Source: Thiohalobacter thiocyanaticus (GTDB taxonomy: Bacteria > Pseudomonadota > Gammaproteobacteria > Thiohalobacterales > Thiohalobacteraceae). From it: a stretch of 64,000 nt of DNA. The notes under the pieces were generated by a model. That model had not been told where the DNA came from. It did no database searches and saw nothing but the letters and a program-made list of their open reading frames with translations. Shown here piece by piece: positions 4,885 to 63,790 of the stretch; position 1 is the first letter of the stretch, and every line of letters begins with the position of its first letter. The stretch is from the NCBI RefSeq assembly GCF_002356355.1, contig NZ_AP018052.1:2902501-2966500 (forward strand), given 5' to 3'. The position numbers and the translations under genes were made by a program.

Positions 4885-5250
4885 TCAGGACGGCGAGAAG
4901 GAGGAGCCGCAGCCGCAGGTCGTGGTCGCGTTGGGGTTGCGGATCACGAACTGGGCCCCGTTGAGGTCTTCCTTGTAGTCGATCTCGGCGCCGACCAGGT
5001 ACTGGAAGCTCATCGGGTCGATCAGCAGGGTCACACCGCACTGCTCGACGCTGGTGTCACCGTCCTTGATCTCCTCGTCGAAGGTGAAACCGTACTGGAA
5101 CCCCGAGCAGCCGCCGCCGGAAATGAAGACGCGCAGCTTCAGGTTCGGGTTGTCCTCTTCCTCGATCAGGCCCTTGACCTTCAGCGCCGCTGCCTCGGTG
5201 AAGATCAGCGGGGATTCTTCAGGGGTTTCGACTGCTGCGTTTTCGCTCAT
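4885..5250 (-). CDS. erpA: Iron-sulfur cluster insertion protein ErpA (A-type carrier)
   Basis: Delivers Fe-S clusters to apo-enzymes such as IspG/IspH. The 121-residue product has the three invariant cysteines of A-type carriers: C48 in [11 protein letters not shown] and C112/C114 in CGCGSSF. The start at 5250 (MSENAAV) is chosen because GGAG lies 7 bases upstream; the ATG two codons earlier is too close to that site. A longer in-frame N-terminal extension up to 5319 has no support. It is the last gene of the argC-DUF6776-bactofilin-erpA run and is followed by a strong hairpin. ErpA is preferred over IscA/SufA because of the acidic N-terminal tail and the absence of isc genes nearby. Confidence 0.94.
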
Positions 5251-5315
5251 GTTCATACTCCGGTTGAAGCGTTTTTCGGAACTGCGGGGCATTATGCAGT
5301 TCCTGAGCGTAGCAG

Positions 5316-5762
5316 TCAAGAATTGTCCTGTGCCACCAGCTGCGGCGGCGACAGGTCTTTCCCTTTTGATTCAATGGGTTTCTTGGTGACAGCCGGCGCC
5401 TTGGCGCCCTGGTGGACCAGATTGCCATTGACCTCGGCCCCCATCGCCATCTCCAGCAGGTGGTAATAGACATTGCCCGTCACCCGCGCCTGCTGACCCA
5501 GTTCGATGCGGCCACTGACATGCACGTCGCCCTCGACCTGGCCGTTGAGCACCACGTTCGCCACCCGGACCTCGCCCTGGATCCGGCCGCGCTCGCTGAG
5601 CATCAGCACGGCCTCGTTCTCGCCGTCGCTGCTGACATTGCCGACGATGCTGCCGTCCACATGCAGTCCGCCGGAAAACTTCAAATCGCCGGTCAGGACC
5701 GTATCCTGGCCCACCAGGGTGTCGATCCGGCCGCTCTGGTGCTTGCGTTTATTCCCCCACAT
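5316..5762 (-). CDS. Bactofilin (polymer-forming cytoskeletal protein)
   Basis: Small beta-helical cytoskeletal protein of the DUF583/bactofilin family that polymerises without nucleotides. In studied bacteria it positions wall enzymes or polarity factors. The 148-residue product has a short basic N-terminus (MWGNKRKHQ), a central beta-helix built of repeats such as [24 protein letters not shown] and QARVTGNV, and a disordered tail. It overlaps the upstream DUF6776 gene by 14 bp, so the two are translationally coupled. The nearby cell-wall genes (M23 peptidase, anmK) make a wall-related role plausible, but that is inference. Confidence 0.9.
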
Positions 5763-6510
5763 TGGCGTTCTCCTCTGTTGCGGGTATGCCTGCCGCGGTC
5801 TTCCAGGCGAAGGTCCAGTGCTGCGCCTCGCCGCCGCCCCGGGGCTGTGCCCGGACCTCCACTTCGCGGGCCGTGAAGCCGGCGGGCAGGGTCCAGTTGC
5901 CCTCGATGACCTGAAAGTAGCGGTAGCGATAACGGATGGCCGCGGCCGCTTCCGGGTCGGGGGACAGGCTGGCGTGGTCGTAGGCGATCGCCGCGCCGTC
6001 CCGGGTCCCCCTGACGTTGAATTCGATCTCGCCCTGGGCGAGCTGGTCGTTGCTGCCGATCTGCACCATGACCAGGCGGAACCGGAAGCTGCGCGGCCCC
6101 AACCCCCGCGTCAGGCTGAAATCCTGGGCATGGATGCCCTCGATCTCGCGCTCCGGCGCCATGATGCCGCGATAGAAGGCCAGTTCCTCGCGCAGGGCGG
6201 TGATGGTCTGCTCCAGTTGCGCACGGCTGCGGCGATAGTCGGCGTAGGCCTGCTGATCGATCTGTCGGGCCCGCTCGGCCGCGGCGAACTGGCGCTGCAG
6301 TTCGCTGTTGCGTTCCTCGAGCACCGCCACCCGTTGCTGCAGGTCGTCGCGCTCCAGCCGCAGCCGGGTCAGCGCCTCGCGGGAGTGCGATCCTCCCCAG
6401 GTGTATAACAGCCAGCCCCCGGCCAGCACCAGGAACAGGGTCACAAGAACCGCCAGGCGCACGGTCCAGCGCCGGAGGATCAGAACCTCGGTCTTGCCTG
6501 TACCCAGCAT
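5749..6510 (-). CDS. DUF6776-like membrane protein with coiled coil
   Basis: Function unknown. The 253-residue product has a short cytoplasmic start, one membrane segment at about residues 17-40, a coiled coil at about 45-115 (LRLERDDLQQRVAVLEERN and following heptads), then a soluble beta-rich domain of about 130 residues containing QGEIEFNVRGT and WTLPAGFTAREVEV. This layout matches the DUF6776 family of proteobacterial inner-membrane proteins that neighbour bactofilin genes. The 14-bp overlap with bactofilin suggests that it may recruit bactofilin to the membrane (inference). argC ends 14 bp downstream of its start on the same strand side, so transcription may read through from argC. Confidence 0.8.
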   Translation of the reverse strand: MLGTGKTEVLILRRWTVRLAVLVTLFLVLAGGWLLYTWGGSHSREALTRLRLERDDLQQRVAVLEERNSELQRQFAAAERARQIDQQAYADYRRSRAQLEQTITALREELAFYRGIMAPEREIEGIHAQDFSLTRGLGPRSFRFRLVMVQIGSNDQLAQGEIEFNVRGTRDGAAIAYDHASLSPDPEAAAAIRYRYRYFQVIEGNWTLPAGFTAREVEVRAQPRGGGEAQHWTFAWKTAAGIPATEENANVGE

Positions 6511-54813: not shown

Positions 54814-57120
54814 TCAGCGGGCCTCACCGACCGTCTCGATCAGCACCGGGATGCGTGCCGGCGCCAGGCACTGTCCGGCGTCGCTGCAGGCCTGGGCATG
54901 CACGCTCAACTCCAGCCCCGGCGGCGCGGCCCGCTCAAGTCGCAGTGGGATGCGCGTGCCGTCGTCATAGACCCGGATGGGCCATTCGAAGCCGGCCGCC
55001 AGCGGCCGGCCGGCGGGGTAATCGGCCGTCAGTACCAGTTCGCGGCCGCCGGCGCGGGCGCTGACCCGGGTCGGTATCAGGAACTCCAGCGAGGCCGGTG
55101 AGGCATTGACGTGCCAGCCGGGATCCAGTTGCAGGGTCAGGATCAGCCGGCGCGGATCCTCTGCCTCGGACCGGGCCACCACCCGCAGCCGGTCGGCCGT
55201 GTCCGGCGGCGTGAAATCCTGCGCCGGCGGCGCTGCGCCCTCATCGAGCCCCGCCGCACGGTATTCGGCCAGCGCCCGGAGCATGTGGGGCATGGCCGTG
55301 GGCGCCTCCTCCAGTACGGGCGTGAAGGCGCGCAGGGTCGCGGCGGCATAGGCACCGAAGCGCTCATCGACCTGTCGCGCCAGGCCGGCGAGGGCGCGCG
55401 CGGCCAGGCTGTTGGGTGCGGGCAGGGCGGCATCGCGACGCGACCTGGGCTGCACGACCAGGTGCCCGACGGCGGCATCGGCATAGTGGAAGCCGCCGGC
55501 CGGATCCCAGAGCGCGGCGATCATCGCATCGCCCAACTGTCCGGCGGCACGCCGCCAGCGCGCCTCGTCGCGCACCCGGTCCAGCGCCAGCAGTCCGAGA
55601 ATGGTGGCGGCATAGTCATCGAGATAGGCCGGCAGCCGGGCTTCCCCGCCGCGGGCCACATGCAGCAGACGGCCGTCGGCGTCCCGCAGCTGCCGCAGCA
55701 GGGCATCGGCGGCACCCGCCGCCTGGTCGATATAGTCCTTGCGCCCCAGCGCCGCGCCGGCATCCGCCAGCGCCTCGATCATCAGGCCGTTCCAGGCCGT
55801 GATGACCTTGTCATCGGTGTGCGGCTGCGGACGCTGCAGGCGGACCGCGAGCAGCTGGTCGCGGATCGGCGCCAGACGCGCCTGCAGCCGGGTCGGCGTC
55901 AACCCCAGGGCCTCGGCCGTCGCCGCATAGCCCTGCGGCCAGTGCAGCACATGGCCATGATCCAGCTCGGGCGGTCCCTCCACGCCCCAGACCTGAACGG
56001 CCAGGGCATACTCCGCCTCGGCCAGCACCGCCCGCAGCTGATCCCGGGACCAGACATAGGAAGCACCCTCCACGCCGGCCACCTCGGCATCCTGCGCCGC
56101 ATGGAACAGCCCGTCCGGGCCGGTCATCTCCCGCCTCACCCAGGCCACGATGGCCTCGGCGACCCGGCGATTGGCCGCCTCGCCGGTCAGCGCCCAGGCA
56201 TGCGCATAGACCTGCAGCAGCTGGGCATTGTCATAGAGCATCTTCTCGAAGTGCGGCACGCGCCACTGCGGATCGACGGCATAGCGATGGAAGCCCCCGC
56301 CGACCTGATCGAAAATGCCGCCGCGCGCCATGGCATCCAGAGTGGCGTGGAGCATCTCGCGGGCCCTGGCGTCGCCGCTGCGCTCAGCATGGGTCAGCAG
56401 CAACTGCAGGTTGGACGGCAGCGGAAAACGCGGCGGCGGACCGAAGCCGCCGTCGAAGGGATCGAACTCCTGTTCCAGCCCGGCCACCGCCCGCGCGATC
56501 ACGTCCTTCCCGGGCAGCTGTGCCGCCGCCTCGCCCGGAAGGGCATGGGCCTGTGCGACGCGCGCCATGATCCGGGCCGCGCGACGCTCAATCGCGGGCC
56601 GGTCCTCCCGCCACCGGCTCCGCGCCTCCTTCAGGGTGGCGGCCAGCTGTTCCGGGGACAGGTACACGGCAGCAAAGAAGGGGTCGAGATCCGGTGTGAG
56701 CAGCAGGTTCATGGGCCAGCCGCCGCGTCCGGTCATCTGGCGCAGGGCGGTCATGTAGACGGCATCCACCTCCGGGCGCTCTTCGCGGTCGACCTTAACG
56801 CTGACCGCATAGTCATTGAGCAGCGTCGCGATCGCCGGATCACTGAAGGACTCGCGATTCATCACGTGACACCAGTGGCAGGTCGAGTAGCCCACGGACA
56901 GGAAGATGAATTTGTCCTCGCGCCGGGCCCGCTCGAACGCTGCCGCGCCCCAGGGATGCCAGTCCACCGGGTTGTCGGCGTGCTGCTGCAGGTAGGGGCT
57001 GGCCGCATCGGCCAGCCGATTCCCCTCCCCCGGCGCCTGCGCCTGGACCGCGCCCGGGGCCAGGCACAGGCCGGCCAGGGAAACCATGACGGAACACAAC
57101 CAGGCATGCATAGGAACCAT
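54814..57120 (-). CDS. YyaL-type thioredoxin domain protein (DUF255), secreted
   Basis: Large protein of about 768 residues with a signal peptide (ending GAVQAQA), unlike most family members, which are cytoplasmic. The N-terminal DUF255/thioredoxin-like domain has [20 protein letters not shown] and the motif [10 protein letters not shown] middle six-hairpin glycosidase-like (alpha/alpha) region follows, as in YyaL/SPATA20. The last 130 residues ([19 protein letters not shown]) resemble the DsbD alpha domain, an extra thiol-exchange module. The start could be 57120 or 57111. Converges with the uracil-DNA glycosylase gene; function unknown. Confidence 0.86.
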
Positions 57121-57644
57121 ATCCTCTTGGACCCGGTCCGGGTGAGTGCGTTCACCGGGACGCCGCCGTCGGAGTCGAGCCGCATACGTCAACAATTTTT
57201 ACACGACATCAACTTCCATATCTTGTGACAACAGCCGTTAAATCAGCCGGTAACACCGAATATACGGGATGGCCGGCGGCTGCGCCCGGGAACCGGGGGC
57301 ATTGCCGCCGGAACCCGAAGGATCCGACACATAGACCGCAATTTATTGTTTTTCATATTTTAAACAGCGCAAACTCAGACAAGGGGCGGAGACAGGATCT
57401 CACCCGCTTATGGAAAACCTTACGTTTTGTTGCCCGCGAGCGTGCCGATGTCACGTGAGCCGGCCTGACGACATCATATATCTCTGTTTATCCAGAACAA
57501 AATTTCACCTGGCAGGCCTCTTGCTTGTTCAACAGCGATTACTCCGTTTACCGGCCCGTCCGGGACGGATCTGCTGTTGCCCGCCCCCACCGGCCGGCGA
57601 CAGGCCAGACGTGATAACGATTATTAAAGTTTGAGGGGGAGCCC
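57121..57644. other. 524-bp non-coding region before the PEP-CTERM genes
   Basis: No gene seen. The left part should hold the promoter of the YyaL-type gene. The right part is AT-richer and holds the sigma-54-type promoter at 57510-57525 and about 110 nt of leader before the first PEP-CTERM gene. Confidence 0.6.
57510..57525 (+). promoter_or_regulatory. Sigma-54-type -24/-12 promoter
   Basis: TGGCAGGCCTCTTGCT has GG and GC exactly 10 bp apart and matches TGGCACG-N4-TTGCT at all but one base. It reads into the PEP-CTERM pair; sigma-54 and the PrsK-PrsR system are known to control PEP-CTERM genes in other bacteria. Confidence 0.8.
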
Positions 57645-58268
57645 ATGCCGCACACTATAACCACATCAGGGTGGATGAAACGGGTTGCCGTCGCGCTGGG
57701 AACGGCCTGGCTGTATGCCTCAGCAGTCAGCGCGGCCCCATTGGGCCTGACGCAGCAGTTCCCGGATATCCAGACCTCGGATCTGAACATCAGCTATGAC
57801 GCCGGCACGGGCAGCCTTAGCGCGAACCAGCCCACCTTCGCCATGTTCACCTATTCCGACGGCATCACCTCGACCCAGTACTATGACTGGACCTATTCAT
57901 TGACCGCCAGCCTGGACAGCGGCACCGGCACCCTGACCTCCGGCAGCCTGGAGATCCAGGACGGGTCCAGCGTCACCCAACTCAGCGGCAGCCTCACCGC
58001 CTTCGGTTACACCGATGCAGGCAGCAAAGACGTATTCGAATTCCTGTTCGACGTGACCGGCGGCGCTCTGGCCGGCGACTTCGGCGCGCTGGGCGGCATC
58101 ATCATCGTGACTGACACCAGCGACTTCACCGGAGACTTCGGTATCGATTTCACTGCCGCCAGCACGTCCAACGACACCTTCGCCGCCGTCGTCCCGGTAC
58201 CGGCCGCCGTCTGGCTGTTCGGCAGCGGCCTGCTGGGCCTGGCCGCCGCCGCCCGACGCCGGCACTGA
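57645..58268 (+). CDS. PEP-CTERM-type sorted surface protein
   Basis: Exported protein of 207 residues with a signal peptide (cleavage near residue 30, ASAVSAAP), a Ser/Thr/Gly-rich beta domain and a C-terminal sorting tail VPVPAAVWLFGSGLLGLAAA ending in an Arg cluster. This is the VPxPAAxWL variant of the PEP-CTERM signal cleaved by exosortase. GAGGGGG precedes the ATG. The core (FEFLFDVTGGALAGDFG and DFTGDFGIDFT) is similar to the next gene, so the two are paralogs. No exosortase is in the window. Confidence 0.88.
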   Translation: MPHTITTSGWMKRVAVALGTAWLYASAVSAAPLGLTQQFPDIQTSDLNISYDAGTGSLSANQPTFAMFTYSDGITSTQYYDWTYSLTASLDSGTGTLTSGSLEIQDGSSVTQLSGSLTAFGYTDAGSKDVFEFLFDVTGGALAGDFGALGGIIIVTDTSDFTGDFGIDFTAASTSNDTFAAVVPVPAAVWLFGSGLLGLAAAARRRH

Positions 58269-58309
58269 AAATGGACTTTCAGTCTGCACACAAGACAAGG
58301 AGCACAACC

Positions 58310-58999
58310 GTGACGGAACTGAAAACTCGTATCGGACGCACTGCCGCGGCCCTGCTGCTGGCACTGACGCTCGCACCGGCTCAGGCCACCCTGCTGGACA
58401 TCGATCCCGATGCCCCCCTGCTGCGCTTCGGCAGCCTGCTGAATCAGGGTGCCGACTATGACAGCGCCAGCGGCCGGCTCAGCATCACTGGCGATCCGCA
58501 GGCACTGCAATTCGTCCTGCCGGGCCCCTTCACCGGTATCAGCGGACCGCGCTCCCTGAGCATGGACTTCTTCGTGGACAGCAGCGGCATCGTCACCGGC
58601 GGCATTGCCGGCAACGACTTCGAACTGTTCGGCGAAATCGACAGCGACGGCGACGGCCTTGCGGATTTCACCGGCCTGCTGCTGGCCGGCGAGATCCGCG
58701 ACTTCGGTTTTCAGAACCTGACCGCCACGGTGGATGCAATGGACTTGCTGTTCGAGGTCAGCGGCGGCAGCCTCGCCGGCCAGTTCGCCGGCTTCGGCAT
58801 CGGCGTGGCCATGACACTGGAGAACTCCAGCTTCACCGGCAGCTTCGCCCAGGACTTCACCAGCACCCGGGTCAAGGGCCGCATCGGCACCGCCCCCCTC
58901 CCGCCCAGCCAGATCCCGGAACCGGGCACCGCCTGGTTGCTGGGCCTGGCCCTGCCGGCCCTGCTGCCCGCACTGCGCCGCCGCACCCGACACGGCTAG
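58310..58999 (+). CDS. PEP-CTERM sorted surface protein (paralog)
   Basis: The 229-residue product has a signal peptide (ending APAQA), a beta-rich body and a canonical tail IPEPGTAWLLGLALPALL followed by RRR, the PEP-CTERM signal. The GTG start at 58310 has AAGGAG seven bases upstream; an ATG at 58271 would put 13 polar residues before the signal. The stretch LLFEVSGGSLAGQFAGFG and SFTGSFAQDFT aligns with the previous gene. Starts 41 bp after its stop, so they share a transcript. Probably exported with exopolysaccharide in biofilm or floc formation, as inferred from the family. Confidence 0.88.
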   Translation: MTELKTRIGRTAAALLLALTLAPAQATLLDIDPDAPLLRFGSLLNQGADYDSASGRLSITGDPQALQFVLPGPFTGISGPRSLSMDFFVDSSGIVTGGIAGNDFELFGEIDSDGDGLADFTGLLLAGEIRDFGFQNLTATVDAMDLLFEVSGGSLAGQFAGFGIGVAMTLENSSFTGSFAQDFTSTRVKGRIGTAPLPPSQIPEPGTAWLLGLALPALLPALRRRTRHG

Positions 59000-59002
59000 A
59001 CA

Positions 59003-59629
59003 TCAGCGCGACCACCTGAGCCGCCGGTCAGGCCGCGGCCGTTGTACCGCGCCGGCGGAACCGGTGCCGAACAGCACCCGGCCGGCGAGCCACAGCGCCA
59101 GTCCCGACGCCAGCAGCAGCAGGCTGCGGCCCAGCAGTTGCTGCTGATCCACCAGGTAATTGGTGCATACCCGCACGGGAGCGGCGCTGTAGAGCCAGCC
59201 CAGCACCACCAGCATGCTGAGCAGGTTGCTCCACAGAAAGCCGCGGCCGATCAGCGGCAGGCGGCGCCAGCTCAGCGCCAGCGGCATCCCCACCAGCAGC
59301 GGCAGACTGAGGAACTTGGCCAGTTCCATCAGCGGCGCATTGAGGGCGGCATCGAGCGAGCGCGGCAGCATCCAGAAGGCCGCGGCGAACAGCGCCAGCA
59401 GGGTCAGCGGCAGGCCGGCGGCATTGCAGCGATCCAGACGTTGATGCAACCGGGGCGGCAGCCAGCGCCAGGCGAGCGCCCCGATCCCGACCAGCAGCGG
59501 CAGCTGCACCAGCATGTGGCTGACCATGCCCGCCTCCAGCCAGCCGCGCAGCGGCGGCGCGGCCAACAACGCATAAACCGCCACCAGCATCCAGCCGCGG
59601 CCCGGCCCGACCATTGGATTCACAGCCAT
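59003..59629 (-). CDS. Polytopic membrane protein of the heme-copper cluster (orf1-like)
   Basis: Hydrophobic protein of 208 residues with about six membrane segments and several His/Cys positions (MVSHMLVQLPLLVGIGALAW, RVCTNYLVDQQ). It resembles CtaG/DUF1404-type assembly membrane proteins in size and in the HMxxQ motif. It overlaps the SCO gene by 10 bp and ends the four-gene operon, the place of orf1 in norSY-senC-orf1 clusters. A role in copper or heme insertion into the enzyme is inferred from context only. Confidence 0.8.
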   Translation of the reverse strand: MAVNPMVGPGRGWMLVAVYALLAAPPLRGWLEAGMVSHMLVQLPLLVGIGALAWRWLPPRLHQRLDRCNAAGLPLTLLALFAAAFWMLPRSLDAALNAPLMELAKFLSLPLLVGMPLALSWRRLPLIGRGFLWSNLLSMLVVLGWLYSAAPVRVCTNYLVDQQQLLGRSLLLLASGLALWLAGRVLFGTGSAGAVQRPRPDRRLRWSR

Positions 59630-60225
59630 TCCCGCACCCGCTCAACGAAGGCCAGCGGCCGGTCGTAATCCTCTATCCGCACCAGCCGCCCGTCGCGGTC
59701 GACCAGGTGCAGGGCCGCATTGTGCTCGAAGCCGCCGAAGCCGTCGGGAATGACCACGATGCCGAAGCTGTGCAGCAGGGCCTGCAACTCGTCCGGATCC
59801 TCAACCCGCGCCACCCGCCAGGCCTCGCCGTCCGCATGGTAGCGTGCCGCATAATCGGCCAGCCGCGCCGGGTGGTCGCGCTCGGGATCGAAACTGATGC
59901 TGAGCAACATCAGTTCCCGGCCCGGCACGGACGCCGGCAGGGCATCGCGCACCCGCTGGAAGGCCTGCCCCAGGGCCCGGCACACGCTCGGACAGTTCAC
60001 ATAGATGAACTCCACCGCCAGCAACCGGCCCTGCAGATCAGCCAGCGCAAAGCGCCGGCCGCTCTGGTCCTGCAGCGTCACCGCGGGCAGCGGCCGGGGG
60101 CTGGTGTGCACGGCAAGGCGCCGCGCGCCCTCGTCGGTGAAGGCACGGAAGCCGTCCGTGCCCCAGGCCAGAACAGCGACACCGAGCAGCGTCACCGCCA
60201 GCGCCGTGAGCAGGCTGCACCTCAT
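59620..60225 (-). CDS. SCO1/SenC family copper chaperone
   Basis: Membrane-anchored periplasmic protein of 201 residues that delivers copper to CuA sites. An N-terminal anchor (LLTALAVTLLGVAVLAW) precedes a thioredoxin-like fold with the metal-binding VNCPSVC cysteines and the distal histidine in EHNAALHLVD. The start overlaps the subunit I stop (ATGA), and subunit II in the same operon carries the CuA site it would load. Confidence 0.94.
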   Translation of the reverse strand: MRCSLLTALAVTLLGVAVLAWGTDGFRAFTDEGARRLAVHTSPRPLPAVTLQDQSGRRFALADLQGRLLAVEFIYVNCPSVCRALGQAFQRVRDALPASVPGRELMLLSISFDPERDHPARLADYAARYHADGEAWRVARVEDPDELQALLHSFGIVVIPDGFGGFEHNAALHLVDRDGRLVRIEDYDRPLAFVERVREWL

Positions 60226-61685
60226 ACCGCCCGGCTCCGGGCCTGGCCCAGGCGCAGCAGGAACCGGCCGACGAACACCAGGGTGGCCGCCAGCACCAGC
60301 GCGGCGAACAACGCACCGGCGCGGTCATAGGGCAGCCACTGGGCCAGGTGTTCGGCATAGCGGCGCGGCGCGCCGGCCTGCCCGCCGGCCAGAAAGGCCA
60401 GCACGAAACCCAGCCCCGCCACGGCGAACACCCAGAAACCGATCCGGTCCAGGCCGCGGCCGGCGGCGGTCTGCCGGTCGCCGGTCAGGAAATACATGAA
60501 GCCCAACACCATGGGCAGCATGCCCAGCAGCAGATAGGTATGGAAATGCCCCGGCACCCACATGGTGTTATGCATCACCTGATTGATCACCACGGTGGCG
60601 TCGATGATGGCCGGGATCACGCCCGCCCCCCAGCCGAACATCGACAGCAGCAGCAGACCGGAAGTCAGGTCCCAGCGGATACCGGACCGGTAGACATTGG
60701 TGAGCGCGCCGAACACGGTCACCACCAGCACCGGCAGACCGCTGGCGTAGGAGATCACCTGGCCGGCCACCAGCGCCCACTGCGGCATGGCGAAGTCCAT
60801 CAGCAGATGATGCGGATAATTGGTCATCACCATGATCAGCGAGGCGTTCCAGGCCGCCAGCACCACCTTGTTCGACTTCCAGGGCCGACCGGTATGGCGC
60901 GGCAGGATCTCGTAGACGGCGATCACGGCCATGTAGATGGTGGCGTTGATGAACACATGCCCGAAGAAGTAGGTCATGTTCTTGGCCAGCAGCGGATCGA
61001 TCGCGAAGGCCGGCACATAGAGGTTGATCAGGGTCATGGCGAGGATGGCCGCGCCGACGGTGATGCCGATACTGTTGATGATCAGCACCATGGTGCTGGC
61101 CACCACCGCCACCGGCGGCGCCCGGCCGTCGTCGCGACCGAACAGCTGCGGCCAGCCCAGGGCGCGGCCCAGGTTGCCGTATTGCCCGAGGATGGCACGC
61201 GCCGCATCCAGATACAGCAGCAGGAAGCCGGTGCCGATCACCAGCAGCCCGCCCACGAACAGGGCTGCGGCCTGGGTGTCCCACACCCCCATGGGCCGGG
61301 CCGGCAGCGGATACAGGAAGGTCCAGGCGCCGGCGAAGCCGCCGGCCAGCACGCTGGCCAGGATCATCACCACTCCGGCCAGGAACAGCACCAGGTTGGC
61401 GATGAACATGCCGCGCGACAAGCGCACATACTGGCCCAGGAAGTGCCACATCACCGCCACGCTGGCGAGCGCGGCGATGCCCACCATGCCGGCGCCGTGC
61501 AGTGTCAGCAGTTCATAGAAGGTATCGGGTCCGAGTTGCAGCAACCCGCCCTGGGCCAGGCGCATCAGCAGCCCGAAGGCCATCATCAGCAGCACCACCG
61601 CCCCGGCCGTGACCAGGTAGGCCAGTACCGGCGCGGATGCGCGCCGCGCGGGATCCGGCGCGCCCTTGGCATCGACTTCACTCAT
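60222..61685 (-). CDS. Heme-copper enzyme subunit I lacking the active-site tyrosine (candidate sNOR nitric oxide reductase)
   Basis: Integral membrane catalytic subunit of 487 residues, about twelve segments. Metal ligands are all in place: H63 (LTLHGAG, low-spin heme), H243 (YFFGHVFIN, CuB), H292 and H293 (NYPHHLLMDF, CuB), H380 and H382 (VPGHFH, hemes). In oxidases the residue four after the first CuB histidine is the Tyr cross-linked to it; here it is N247. The NTMWVPGHFH region is close to B-type (ba3-like) oxidases. Loss of that tyrosine is characteristic of NO reductases in this superfamily. The start at 61685 overlaps the subunit II end by 8 bp. An O2-reducing enzyme with an unusual site is the alternative. 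Confidence 0.9.
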   Translation of the reverse strand: MSEVDAKGAPDPARRASAPVLAYLVTAGAVVLLMMAFGLLMRLAQGGLLQLGPDTFYELLTLHGAGMVGIAALASVAVMWHFLGQYVRLSRGMFIANLVLFLAGVVMILASVLAGGFAGAWTFLYPLPARPMGVWDTQAAALFVGGLLVIGTGFLLLYLDAARAILGQYGNLGRALGWPQLFGRDDGRAPPVAVVASTMVLIINSIGITVGAAILAMTLINLYVPAFAIDPLLAKNMTYFFGHVFINATIYMAVIAVYEILPRHTGRPWKSNKVVLAAWNASLIMVMTNYPHHLLMDFAMPQWALVAGQVISYASGLPVLVVTVFGALTNVYRSGIRWDLTSGLLLLSMFGWGAGVIPAIIDATVVINQVMHNTMWVPGHFHTYLLLGMLPMVLGFMYFLTGDRQTAAGRGLDRIGFWVFAVAGLGFVLAFLAGGQAGAPRRYAEHLAQWLPYDRAGALFAALVLAATLVFVGRFLLRLGQARSRAV

Positions 61686-62229
61686 GTGAGTTCTCCTCTT
61701 CGGCAACCGCCACCACCTTCAACTCGGCGATCATGTCGTGATGAATCAGACCGCAGTACTCCAGGCACAGCAGCTTGTAGGTGCCGGGCTCGGCAAAGGT
61801 GTGGCGCAGGGTGTTGGTGTAGTCAGGCATGGCCATCACCTGGGCGACCAGGCGCATGTCCGCGTCATAGATGCCCAGCCCGTGGTTGACGTCGGCGCTG
61901 GTGACCCGGAATTCCACCGGGGTGCCGACACTGGCCCGATCCGTACTGAGATCCCAGGCCCACTGTTTGCCGACCACCTCGATGACCTGGGACTCCCGGC
62001 GGTCGATCCCGGCGCTGGCATAGGGCAGGTCGAGCAATGTGTAGAGCATCACCGGCGTGACCACGACCAGCAGGGCCCAGAACAGGATCCCGCGGATGCG
62101 GTAGGCGCGGCTGACCACGGAGGCGTCCGCGTCCGCGCGGTCGCGCGCCCGCCGCGCCACGAACAGGAAGGCGATGAGCAGAGCCCCCATGAGGATGAGG
62201 CTGAGCTGCCAGGCAAGCGTCTGATACAT
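61678..62229 (-). CDS. Heme-copper enzyme subunit II with CuA site
   Basis: Electron-entry subunit of 183 residues with two N-terminal membrane segments and a periplasmic cupredoxin domain. The CuA ligands are complete: H116 in DVNHGLGIYD, then C155, C159, H163 and M166 in CLEYCGLIHHDM. So electrons come from a soluble cytochrome c or cupredoxin, unlike quinol enzymes and unlike cNOR, whose NorC is a cytochrome c. The start at 62229 has a GGGGA site; it is the first gene after the sigma-54-type promoter and overlaps subunit I by 8 bp. Confidence 0.92.
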   Translation of the reverse strand: MYQTLAWQLSLILMGALLIAFLFVARRARDRADADASVVSRAYRIRGILFWALLVVVTPVMLYTLLDLPYASAGIDRRESQVIEVVGKQWAWDLSTDRASVGTPVEFRVTSADVNHGLGIYDADMRLVAQVMAMPDYTNTLRHTFAEPGTYKLLCLEYCGLIHHDMIAELKVVAVAEEENSHE

Positions 62230-62291: not shown

Positions 62292-62308
62292 TTGCCAGAA
62301 CCATGCCA
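62292..62308 (-). promoter_or_regulatory. Sigma-54-type -24/-12 promoter of the heme-copper operon
   Basis: On the minus strand TGGCATGGTTCTGGCAA has GG and GC exactly 10 bp apart, with TGGCA at -24 and TGGCA at -12 (one mismatch to TTGCA). It would start transcription about 50 nt before subunit II, and the divergent neighbour is a sigma-54 activator. Confidence 0.75.
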
Positions 62309-62340: not shown

Positions 62341-62439
62341 AATACATGTATTCTATATGAATGTTAATATGTGTTCACACTCCCGCCACGCTTGACGTTC
62401 ACTCTGAACATCCGGATCTCCGCCCATGTTCACGCTGAA
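62341..62439. promoter_or_regulatory. Candidate activator sites between operon and regulator
   Basis: A perfect palindrome AATACATGTATT lies at 62341-62352. GTTCA occurs at 62373, 62397 and 62428; the last two sit in GTTCACTCTGAAC and GTTCACGCTGAA, 31 bp apart, about three helical turns. They are 65-150 bp upstream of the sigma-54-type promoter, the right range for an enhancer, and overlap the regulator start, so autoregulation is possible. Confidence 0.45.
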
Positions 62440-63790
62440 TACCCTGAGCCGGTTCCTGGACAGCCTGGAGGAAGGGGTCCTGTTCCTGGATCGCGAGCGC
62501 CGCGTGGTCGCCATCAACGAGGCCGCCAGCGCGCTGCTCGGCCGGGCTCGGGACGAGGTACTGCGCCGGCCCTGTCCTGGCATCTTCGCCGATACCGCCT
62601 GCGCCCGCGCCTGCGAGGCGCGCGGCCACTGCACCCTGAGCCAGGCCCACGCCAGCGCCCGCCAGCTGCAGGACATCAGCCTGACCCGCCCGGACGGCCT
62701 GGCGGTGCATCTGCGCATGTGGTCGCTGCTGCTGCCGCCCAACCAGGCCGACCTGTACAGCGCCATCATCCTGCGCGACCGCTCGCGCGAGGTGGAACTG
62801 GAAGGCGAGGTGCGCGAGCGGCTGCGCCTGGGCGGCATCGTCGGCCACAGCCCGGTGATGCAGACCCTGTACGAGAAGATCCTGCGCGCCGCCACCAGCG
62901 ACGCCACCGTGCTGGTGATGGGCGAGTCCGGCACCGGCAAGGAACTGGTGGCCCGCGCCCTGCACGACAATTCGCCCCGCAGCAGCGGCCCCTACATCGC
63001 CGTGCACTGCGCCGCCCTGCCGGAGAACCTGCTGGAGGCGGAGTTGTTCGGCCATGCCCGCGGCGCCTTCACCGGTGCGGCCACGGCGCGCGCCGGCCGC
63101 TTCGAGGCAGCCCACGGCGGCACCCTGCTGCTGGACGAGATCGGCGAGATTCCCCCCAGCATCCAGGTCAAGCTGCTGCGGGTGTTGCAGGAGCGCGAGA
63201 TCGTGCGCCTGGGCGAGAACCACGCCCGGGCGATCGACGTGCGCGTGATAGCGGCCACCCACCGCGACCTGGCCGCCATGGTCCAGCGCGGCGAATTCCG
63301 CGAGGATCTGTATTACCGGCTGCGGGTACTGCCGCTGGAGGTCCCGGCCCTGCGCCAGCGCCGCGAGGACATCGCCATGCTCGCCACCCGACTGCTGGAG
63401 GACGTGGCCCAGAACTATCAACGCCCCCCGCCGGAGTTGGCGCATGAAACCGTGCTGCAGCTGGAAGCCTGCGACTGGCCGGGCAATGTGCGGCAGCTGG
63501 CCAATGCCATCGAATACGCCCTGGTCCACTGCGACGGCGAGCGCATTCTGCCCCGCCATCTCCCGCCGGACATCGCCGGCGACGCGGTGCTGTCCGCAGT
63601 ACCGGCACCGGGCAAGGCCGGCCTGACCCGTTACTACCGCGCTCCGATCAACGACGCCGACGAATGGACACGAATCCGGCAGACCCTGCGCGCAACCGGC
63701 GGCAACAAGGCCGAGGCCGCCCGCCGCCTGGGCATGTCGCGCACCACCCTGTGGAAGCGGCTGCGGGAAAATGCTCGCCGTCAGCGTTGA
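62426..63790 (+). CDS. Sigma-54-dependent regulator with cysteine-containing PAS domain
   Basis: Enhancer-binding activator of 454 residues. The N-terminal PAS domain (about 5-120) has four cysteines, C50, C59, C63 and C69 ([20 protein letters not shown] and GHC), a pattern that could hold a metal, an Fe-S cluster or a redox switch. The AAA+ domain follows with Walker A GESGTGKE (166-173), sigma-54 contact loop GAFTGA (213-218) and Walker B LLLDEIGE, then a Fis-type helix-turn-helix ([20 protein letters not shown]). It is divergent from the heme-copper operon, 196 bp between starts. NorR has a GAF mono-iron sensor instead, so this would be a different sensor. Confidence 0.9.

What the first reader, a model, noticed from the sequence alone, without database searches (positions are those of the whole stretch)
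59003..62229. Candidate NO reductase of the sNOR type: CuA subunit plus subunit I with Asn in place of the active-site tyrosine
Seen: four overlapping genes in the order CuA subunit II, subunit I, SCO, membrane protein. Subunit I keeps all six heme/CuB histidines but has N247 four residues after H243, where oxidases carry the His-linked tyrosine. Known: NO reductases in this superfamily lack that tyrosine, and ammonia oxidisers have norSY-senC-orf1 clusters with this gene order. Inference: this encodes a nitric oxide reductase fed by cytochrome c or cupredoxin. The organism is not obviously an ammonia oxidiser in this window, so it may widen the range of this enzyme.
Basis: partly seen in the sequence, partly recalled or inferred. 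Interest (0 to 1): 0.8.

Follow-up and report, generated by a model that had tools for sequence, protein, structure and literature searches.

The report
sNOR-type nitric oxide reductase in Thiohalobacter
A salt-loving sulfur bacterium carries, besides its ordinary denitrification enzyme, a second and less studied kind of predicted nitric oxide-consuming enzyme (sNOR) that is already known from other bacteria; what is new is mainly the switch gene beside it.

Summary
Four overlapping minus-strand genes (norS CuA subunit, norY subunit I, SCO, membrane protein orf1) lie at 59003-62229 of a complete Thiohalobacter genome. NorY keeps all six metal-ligand histidines and has Asn247 where oxidases carry the His-linked Tyr. 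Asn247 is invariant across 26 aligned homologues. NorY groups (100/100) with Alpha- and Gammaproteobacterial copies, including that of Ruegeria (Silicibacter) pomeroyi, a taxon the literature names for sNOR. It does not group with ba3 oxidases (AU p about 1e-8) or Gln-type eNOR. The Tyr sites of both oxidase types and most of the ba3 K-channel are gone. So it is an sNOR by sequence. NO reduction itself is inferred: I found no purified enzyme of this subtype, and one group proposes an O2-reducing role in Nitrosomonas. The suggested widening of range is not new: sNOR is known from Silicibacter, Deinococcus, Geobacillus and Methylomirabilis. The genome lacks AMO and has nirS-norCB and nosZ, so sNOR is a second NOR in a predicted denitrifier. 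New here: a divergent sigma-54 activator with a conserved four-Cys PAS domain and a conserved -24/-12 promoter, in the slot held by NsrR-like genes in other sNOR clusters.

The parts
61678..62229 (-). norS: CuA-type subunit II, 183 aa, two N-terminal TM helices, complete CuA motif (H116, C155-x-E-x-C-x3-H-x2-M)
   Evidence: CoxB model, 72.6 bits, below cut-off; TM and motif; Thermus ba3 CuA subunit in the PDB, E 1e-10
60222..61685 (-). norY: catalytic subunit I, 487 aa, six ligand His, N247 in place of the cross-linked Tyr, V254 and V319 in place of K-channel residues
   Evidence: (PF00115, 173 bits)
59620..60225 (-). SCO1/SenC-type protein, likely CuA assembly factor (CxxxC motif VNCPSVC)
   Evidence: PF02630, E 6.6e-17; conserved next to norY in 20 loci
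59003..59629 (-). orf1: 208 aa membrane protein, no library family, conserved fourth gene of the cluster
   Evidence: no hit; homologues in 20 loci; TM segments
62293..62308 (-). predicted sigma-54 promoter TGGCATggttcTGGCA, conserved as TGGCAYGGTTCTGGCW in T. thiocyanaticus and in another genome of the family
   Evidence: conservation; 1 match in window, 0.15 expected
62341..62352 (.). palindrome AATACATGTATT upstream of norS; the only copy in this genome and in T. thiocyanaticus; candidate activator site
   Evidence: not present exactly in the more distant G278
62397..62409 (.). inverted repeat GTTCACTCTGAAC, conserved in T. thiocyanaticus and nearly so in G278; candidate second regulator site
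62426..63790 (+). divergent sigma-54-dependent activator: PAS domain with a conserved C-x8-C-x3-C-x5-C cluster, AAA+ domain, Fis-type HTH; not NorR (no GAF, 324 bits against cut-off 476)
   Evidence: 86% and 75% identical copies in the same place in two relatives, all four Cys kept

Best explanation
This is an sNOR, a CuA-containing nitric oxide reductase of the B-family-related branch of the haem-copper superfamily. Inferred mechanism: cytochrome c or a cupredoxin hands electrons to CuA in NorS; they pass to the low-spin haem (H63, H382) and on to the haem/CuB site (H380; H243, H292, H293) of NorY, where two NO become N2O. With Asn at the Tyr site and the ba3 K-channel largely gone, it lacks the usual apparatus for splitting O2 and pumping protons. 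SCO loads CuA. A divergent sigma-54 activator with a four-Cys PAS sensor (possibly an Fe-S cluster that reads NO or O2) switches the operon on through a -24/-12 promoter. The enzyme works beside, not instead of, the genome's cNOR, most likely clearing NO when the denitrification cNOR is not expressed or when some O2 is present. Shown: gene content, residues, phylogeny, synteny, conservation of the promoter-like site. Inferred: substrate, electron donor, regulation, division of labour.
For: N247 is invariant in 26 homologues; eNOR relatives have Gln and ba3/aa3 have Tyr at that column. The clade of 22 rows (Pseudomonadota plus one Thermomicrobiales MAG) has 100/100 support and includes Ruegeria (Silicibacter) pomeroyi, a genus named for sNOR (PMC8756737 Table A4 gives residue N). 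Grouping with ba3 is rejected, p-AU 1e-8. The cbb3-type Tyr position is V286 (position from own knowledge of cbb3). K-channel residues are replaced: Tyr by V254, Ser by V319 (Val, Ile, Leu or Ala in 23 of 26 rows). Bacillus azotoformans qCuANOR, a purified NO reductase, has Asn at the same Tyr site (PMC3475470). NsrR-like Rrf2 regulators lie divergent to norS in 8 other sNOR loci and elsewhere in about 4 more; formate/nitrite-family transporters occur in 7. The genome has nirS, norCB and nosZ, so it should make NO.
Against: No biochemistry for this subtype was found in the sources read, and B. azotoformans qCuANOR is a different branch (bNOR). N. europaea sNOR is induced under O2 limitation and was proposed to be an oxidase (PMC6967387). 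NorY lacks the NorB glutamates (noted for NorY in PMC6967387). Y290, near CuB by sequence, is present in 24 of 26. The genome already has a cNOR. The Rrf2 regulators score below the NsrR cut-off. No Nitrosomonas europaea or Bacillus sequence could be placed in the tree.
Confidence: 0.78

Rival explanations
1. NorSY is mainly a high-affinity terminal oxidase that reduces O2 without a cross-linked tyrosine, as proposed for N. europaea sNOR, useful when O2 is scarce and NO high.
For: Strong induction under O2 limitation in N. europaea and a haem-copper centre (PMC6967387); CuA subunit and SCO as in oxidases.
Against: Tyr is replaced by Asn without exception in 26 relatives and K-channel residues are lost. 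The genome already has two cbb3 subunits I and an aa3 subunit I for O2. NsrR-like regulators and nitrite-family transporters cluster with it elsewhere.
Confidence: 0.15
2. An ordinary ba3-type O2 reductase in which the Asn is a local oddity or sequencing error.
For: The best named PDB sequence hits are ba3 oxidases and the fold is that of oxidase subunit I.
Against: Asn is invariant in 26 homologues from several phyla; the clade is separate from ba3 at 100/100 and p-AU 1e-8.
Confidence: 0.02
3. It belongs to the bNOR (qCuANOR type I) or another proposed branch rather than sNOR proper.
For: bNOR also has Asn at the Tyr site (PMC3475470), and no bNOR sequence was available for the tree.
Against: Subunit I is short (487 aa) and subunit II has two TM helices, as described for the type II enzyme and not for bNOR (PMC3475470); grouping with the Silicibacter copy.
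Confidence: 0.05

Closest known systems
sNOR of Ruegeria (Silicibacter) pomeroyi DSS-3 megaplasmid (SPO_RS20760-20745)
   Same: 54.5% identity in subunit I, Asn at the Tyr site, same four-gene order CuA subunit, subunit I, SCO, orf1
   Different: That locus carries an NsrR-like Rrf2 gene and a formate/nitrite transporter instead of a sigma-54 activator; annotated there only as cbb3-type oxidase
norSY-senC-orf1 of ammonia oxidisers (NE0683-86 in Nitrosomonas europaea)
   Same: Same gene order and named content (PMC4940428); sNOR residue N (PMC8756737)
   Different: Sequence not available here, so not compared directly; that host oxidises ammonia, this one does not
qCuANOR / bNOR of Bacillus azotoformans
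   Same: CuA subunit, Asn at the Tyr site, SCO and membrane protein linked (PMC3475470)
   Different: Longer subunit I, one TM in subunit II, extra 46-residue peptide; treated as a separate family (PMC11388526)
eNOR
   Same: CuA two-subunit NOR, Tyr replaced by an amide residue
   Different: Gln instead of Asn, separate clade
ba3 cytochrome c oxidase (Thermus)
   Same: Fold, six His, CuA subunit
   Different: Has the cross-linked Tyr and the K-channel that NorY lacks
NorR and NsrR (NO-responsive regulators)
   Same: The regulator is a sigma-54 AAA+ activator like NorR and sits where NsrR-like genes sit in other sNOR clusters
   Different: PAS with four Cys rather than GAF; below the NorR cut-off

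Membership tests
sNOR | Asn in place of the His-linked Tyr in subunit I | tested here: met
   N247, invariant in 26 homologues; sNOR = N in PMC8756737 Table A4
sNOR | Six histidine ligands of two haems and CuB | tested here: met
   H63, H243, H292, H293, H380, H382
sNOR | CuA cupredoxin subunit II with two TM helices, short 12-TM-type subunit I | tested here: met
   NorS 2 TM and full CuA motif, NorY 487 aa with about 12 long helices in the model; criteria from PMC3475470
sNOR | Gene order norS-norY-senC-orf1 | tested here: met
   order from PMC4940428
sNOR | Phylogenetic grouping with literature-named sNOR | tested here: met
   100/100 clade with R. pomeroyi (Silicibacter) and a Nitrosomonadales copy; N. 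europaea itself not available
sNOR | No conserved proton channel | tested here: met
   K-channel Tyr and Ser of ba3 replaced by V254 and V319, the Thr falls in a gap, Y258 kept; by alignment only
sNOR | Reduces NO to N2O | not testable with these tools
   needs an enzyme assay
ba3 O2 reductase | Tyr cross-linked to the CuB His on helix VI | tested here: not met
   N247
ba3 O2 reductase | Grouping with ba3 oxidases | tested here: not met
   p-AU 1.2e-8
eNOR | Gln at the Tyr site and grouping with eNOR | tested here: not met
   Asn; separate clade
bNOR | Subunit II with one TM and longer 13-TM subunit I | tested here: not met
   two TM, 487 aa; no bNOR sequence in the tree
NorR (regulator at 62426-63790) | GAF sensor and score above the curated cut-off | tested here: not met
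   PAS instead, 324 bits against 476

The most novel reading that the evidence does not exclude
NorSY reduces O2 in the cell although it has no tyrosine in the active site, making it a haem-copper oxidase that works without the His-Tyr cofactor and is switched on by an Fe-S PAS sigma-54 activator at low O2 or high NO.
Probability: 0.12. Interest if true: 0.65.

Novelty: new member of a known kind. Interest (0 to 1): 0.36.

Why it matters
sNOR genes are usually annotated as cytochrome c or cbb3 oxidase, so NO-consuming capacity and N2O output are misread in genomes; a syntenic, well-placed case in a cultivated genus helps to fix this. Whether sNOR reduces NO or O2 in the cell is unsettled, and a cultured non-nitrifier with a separate cNOR and separate O2 oxidases is a cleaner test host than an ammonia oxidiser. 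The sigma-54/PAS regulator in the slot held elsewhere by NsrR-like genes suggests that a NO or redox signal controls sNOR through two unrelated regulator classes.

Tried and rejected
Considered and rejected: ba3 oxidase with a chance Asn (tree and invariance); a cbb3-style tyrosine on helix VII (V286 at that place); Y290 as substitute tyrosine (Phe in 2 of 26, so not required; not excluded structurally); NorR as name of the regulator (below cut-off, no GAF). One look-up by a guessed DOI returned an unrelated article.

Full report
WHAT IS THERE. The window is part of a complete 3.23 Mb genome of a Thiohalobacter species: the closest named relative is T. thiocyanaticus Hrh1 (88% in subunit I). 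On the minus strand four genes overlap at their ends: norS 61678-62229, norY 60222-61685, SCO 59620-60225, orf1 59003-59629. NorS is a CuA subunit with two TM helices and a full CuA motif. NorY belongs to PF00115; its predicted model (mean pLDDT 82.6) matches haem-copper subunit I structures. The SCO gene is PF02630. orf1 has no library family but is conserved.

ACTIVE SITE. Aligned with 25 relatives, NorY has the six ligand histidines; N247 is invariant where Thermus ba3 and the genome's own aa3 have Tyr and where eNOR relatives have Gln. The position of the cbb3 cross-linked Tyr, six residues before the helix VII histidine pair (own knowledge of the cbb3 structure), is V286. Of the ba3 K-channel residues, one Tyr is V254 and the Ser is V319 (Val in 15 of 26 rows, Ser in 3); the Thr falls in a two-residue gap; Y258 is kept. 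Y290, two residues before the histidine pair, is Tyr in 24 and Phe in 2. Two further invariant tyrosines (Y251, Y384) lie where oxidases have other residues.

PHYLOGENY. Two careful trees place NorY in a clade with 100/100 support: Thiohalobacter, other Gammaproteobacteria, Alphaproteobacteria including the Ruegeria (formerly Silicibacter) pomeroyi megaplasmid copy, a Nitrosomonadales MAG, and one Thermomicrobiales MAG. Asn-bearing homologues of Chloroflexota and Gemmatimonadota are its nearest outer relatives. The ba3 oxidases and eNOR form separate clades. Holding the core sNOR rows together with ba3 is rejected (p-AU 1.2e-8). Long branches separate these families, so their deeper order is not claimed.

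SYNTENY. norS-norY-SCO-orf1 occurs in 20 distinct loci in the same order. In 8 loci an Rrf2-family gene is divergent to norS, and in about 4 more one lies elsewhere in the locus; 8 of 10 tested score highest with the NsrR model, though below its cut-off. Formate/nitrite-family transporter genes lie in 7 loci. In Thiohalobacter (two species) and one further genome of the family the divergent slot holds instead a PAS-AAA+-Fis sigma-54 activator (86% and 75% identity) with a C-x8-C-x3-C-x5-C cluster kept in all three. Upstream of norS all three keep TGGCAYGGTTCTGGCW, a -24/-12 type site with GG-N10-GC spacing. The two Thiohalobacter species also share AATACATGTATT, unique in each genome.

METABOLIC SETTING. 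The genome has aa3, two cbb3 subunits I, and a cNOR whose NorB matches the solved cNOR 3o0r at E 5e-239. norCB lies about 10 kb downstream of nirS in one island with nir biogenesis genes. nosZ is present, AMO is absent. So this is a predicted NirS denitrifier with two unlike NORs. Of 21 sNOR-bearing genomes only one has an AMO-family gene and 13 have nosZ (two of the 21 handles, G281 and G282, appear to be the same genome). Across the class the gene is patchy: 8 of 274 sampled genomes, this one included.

FUNCTION. The literature read gives the Asn residue as the sNOR mark (PMC8756737 Table A4; PMC3475470) and identifies a purified NO reductase with the same Tyr-to-Asn change in B. azotoformans (PMC3475470). 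It also records an open dispute: N. europaea sNOR genes rise 2.7 to 10.8-fold under O2 limitation and the enzyme may be an oxidase, while indirect evidence for NO reduction is mentioned for Nitrococcus mobilis (PMC6967387). A Thiohalobacteraceae MAG was enriched in a bioreactor fed sulfide and NO (PMC8906906), which fits a NO-tolerant denitrifying life but does not name the enzyme. My reading: sNOR with NO reductase function about 0.78, O2 role about 0.15.

NOVELTY. The enzyme type and its presence outside ammonia oxidisers are known. New, as far as the sources read show, is the regulator arrangement in Thiohalobacteraceae; a text search for sigma-54 together with sNOR found only a Nitrosococcus genome paper, which I did not read for this link.

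Noticed in passing
L039 (same-family genome G278, contig C72:206821-208140): A very divergent haem-copper subunit I with a CuA subunit upstream: Glu at the Tyr site (AHNLME) and Met where the second low-spin haem His should be (TGHTMT). Only weak matches in NCBIfam, PDB and plasmids; branch length over 5. It may be one of the proposed unassayed NOR types (gNOR/nNOR) or something new.
   Followed up: partly
L071-L096 (genomes of the same phylum): Many Pseudomonadota genomes in the sample carry eNOR-type subunit I with Gln at the Tyr site (GHSSQQ), a rarely annotated NOR.
   Followed up: partly
L011 / G284:C96:8447-23089: An uncultured gammaproteobacterium has norSY-SCO-orf1 and an NsrR-like gene about 11 kb from an amoCAB/pmoCAB-like cluster, and next to a gene resembling boxB.
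   Followed up: partly
L041 (Parasedimentitalea marina pW43B) 4962-6433: norY is split into two overlapping frames with no annotated gene: probably frameshifted or a sequencing error.
   Followed up: no
window 57645-58268 and 58271-58999: Two adjacent predicted secreted proteins ending in PEP-CTERM-like sorting signals (VPVPAAVWLFGSGLLGLAAAARRRH; IPEPGTAWLLGLALPALLPALRRR).
   Followed up: no
window 54814-57195: Large thioredoxin-like (YyaL/DUF255-type by eye) protein with a C-terminal DsbD-like stretch, near the sNOR operon; not checked against a library.
   Followed up: no
own genome C1:743611-744747: A further cytochrome d1-type gene apart from the nir island (341 bits), possibly a second NirS.
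   Followed up: no
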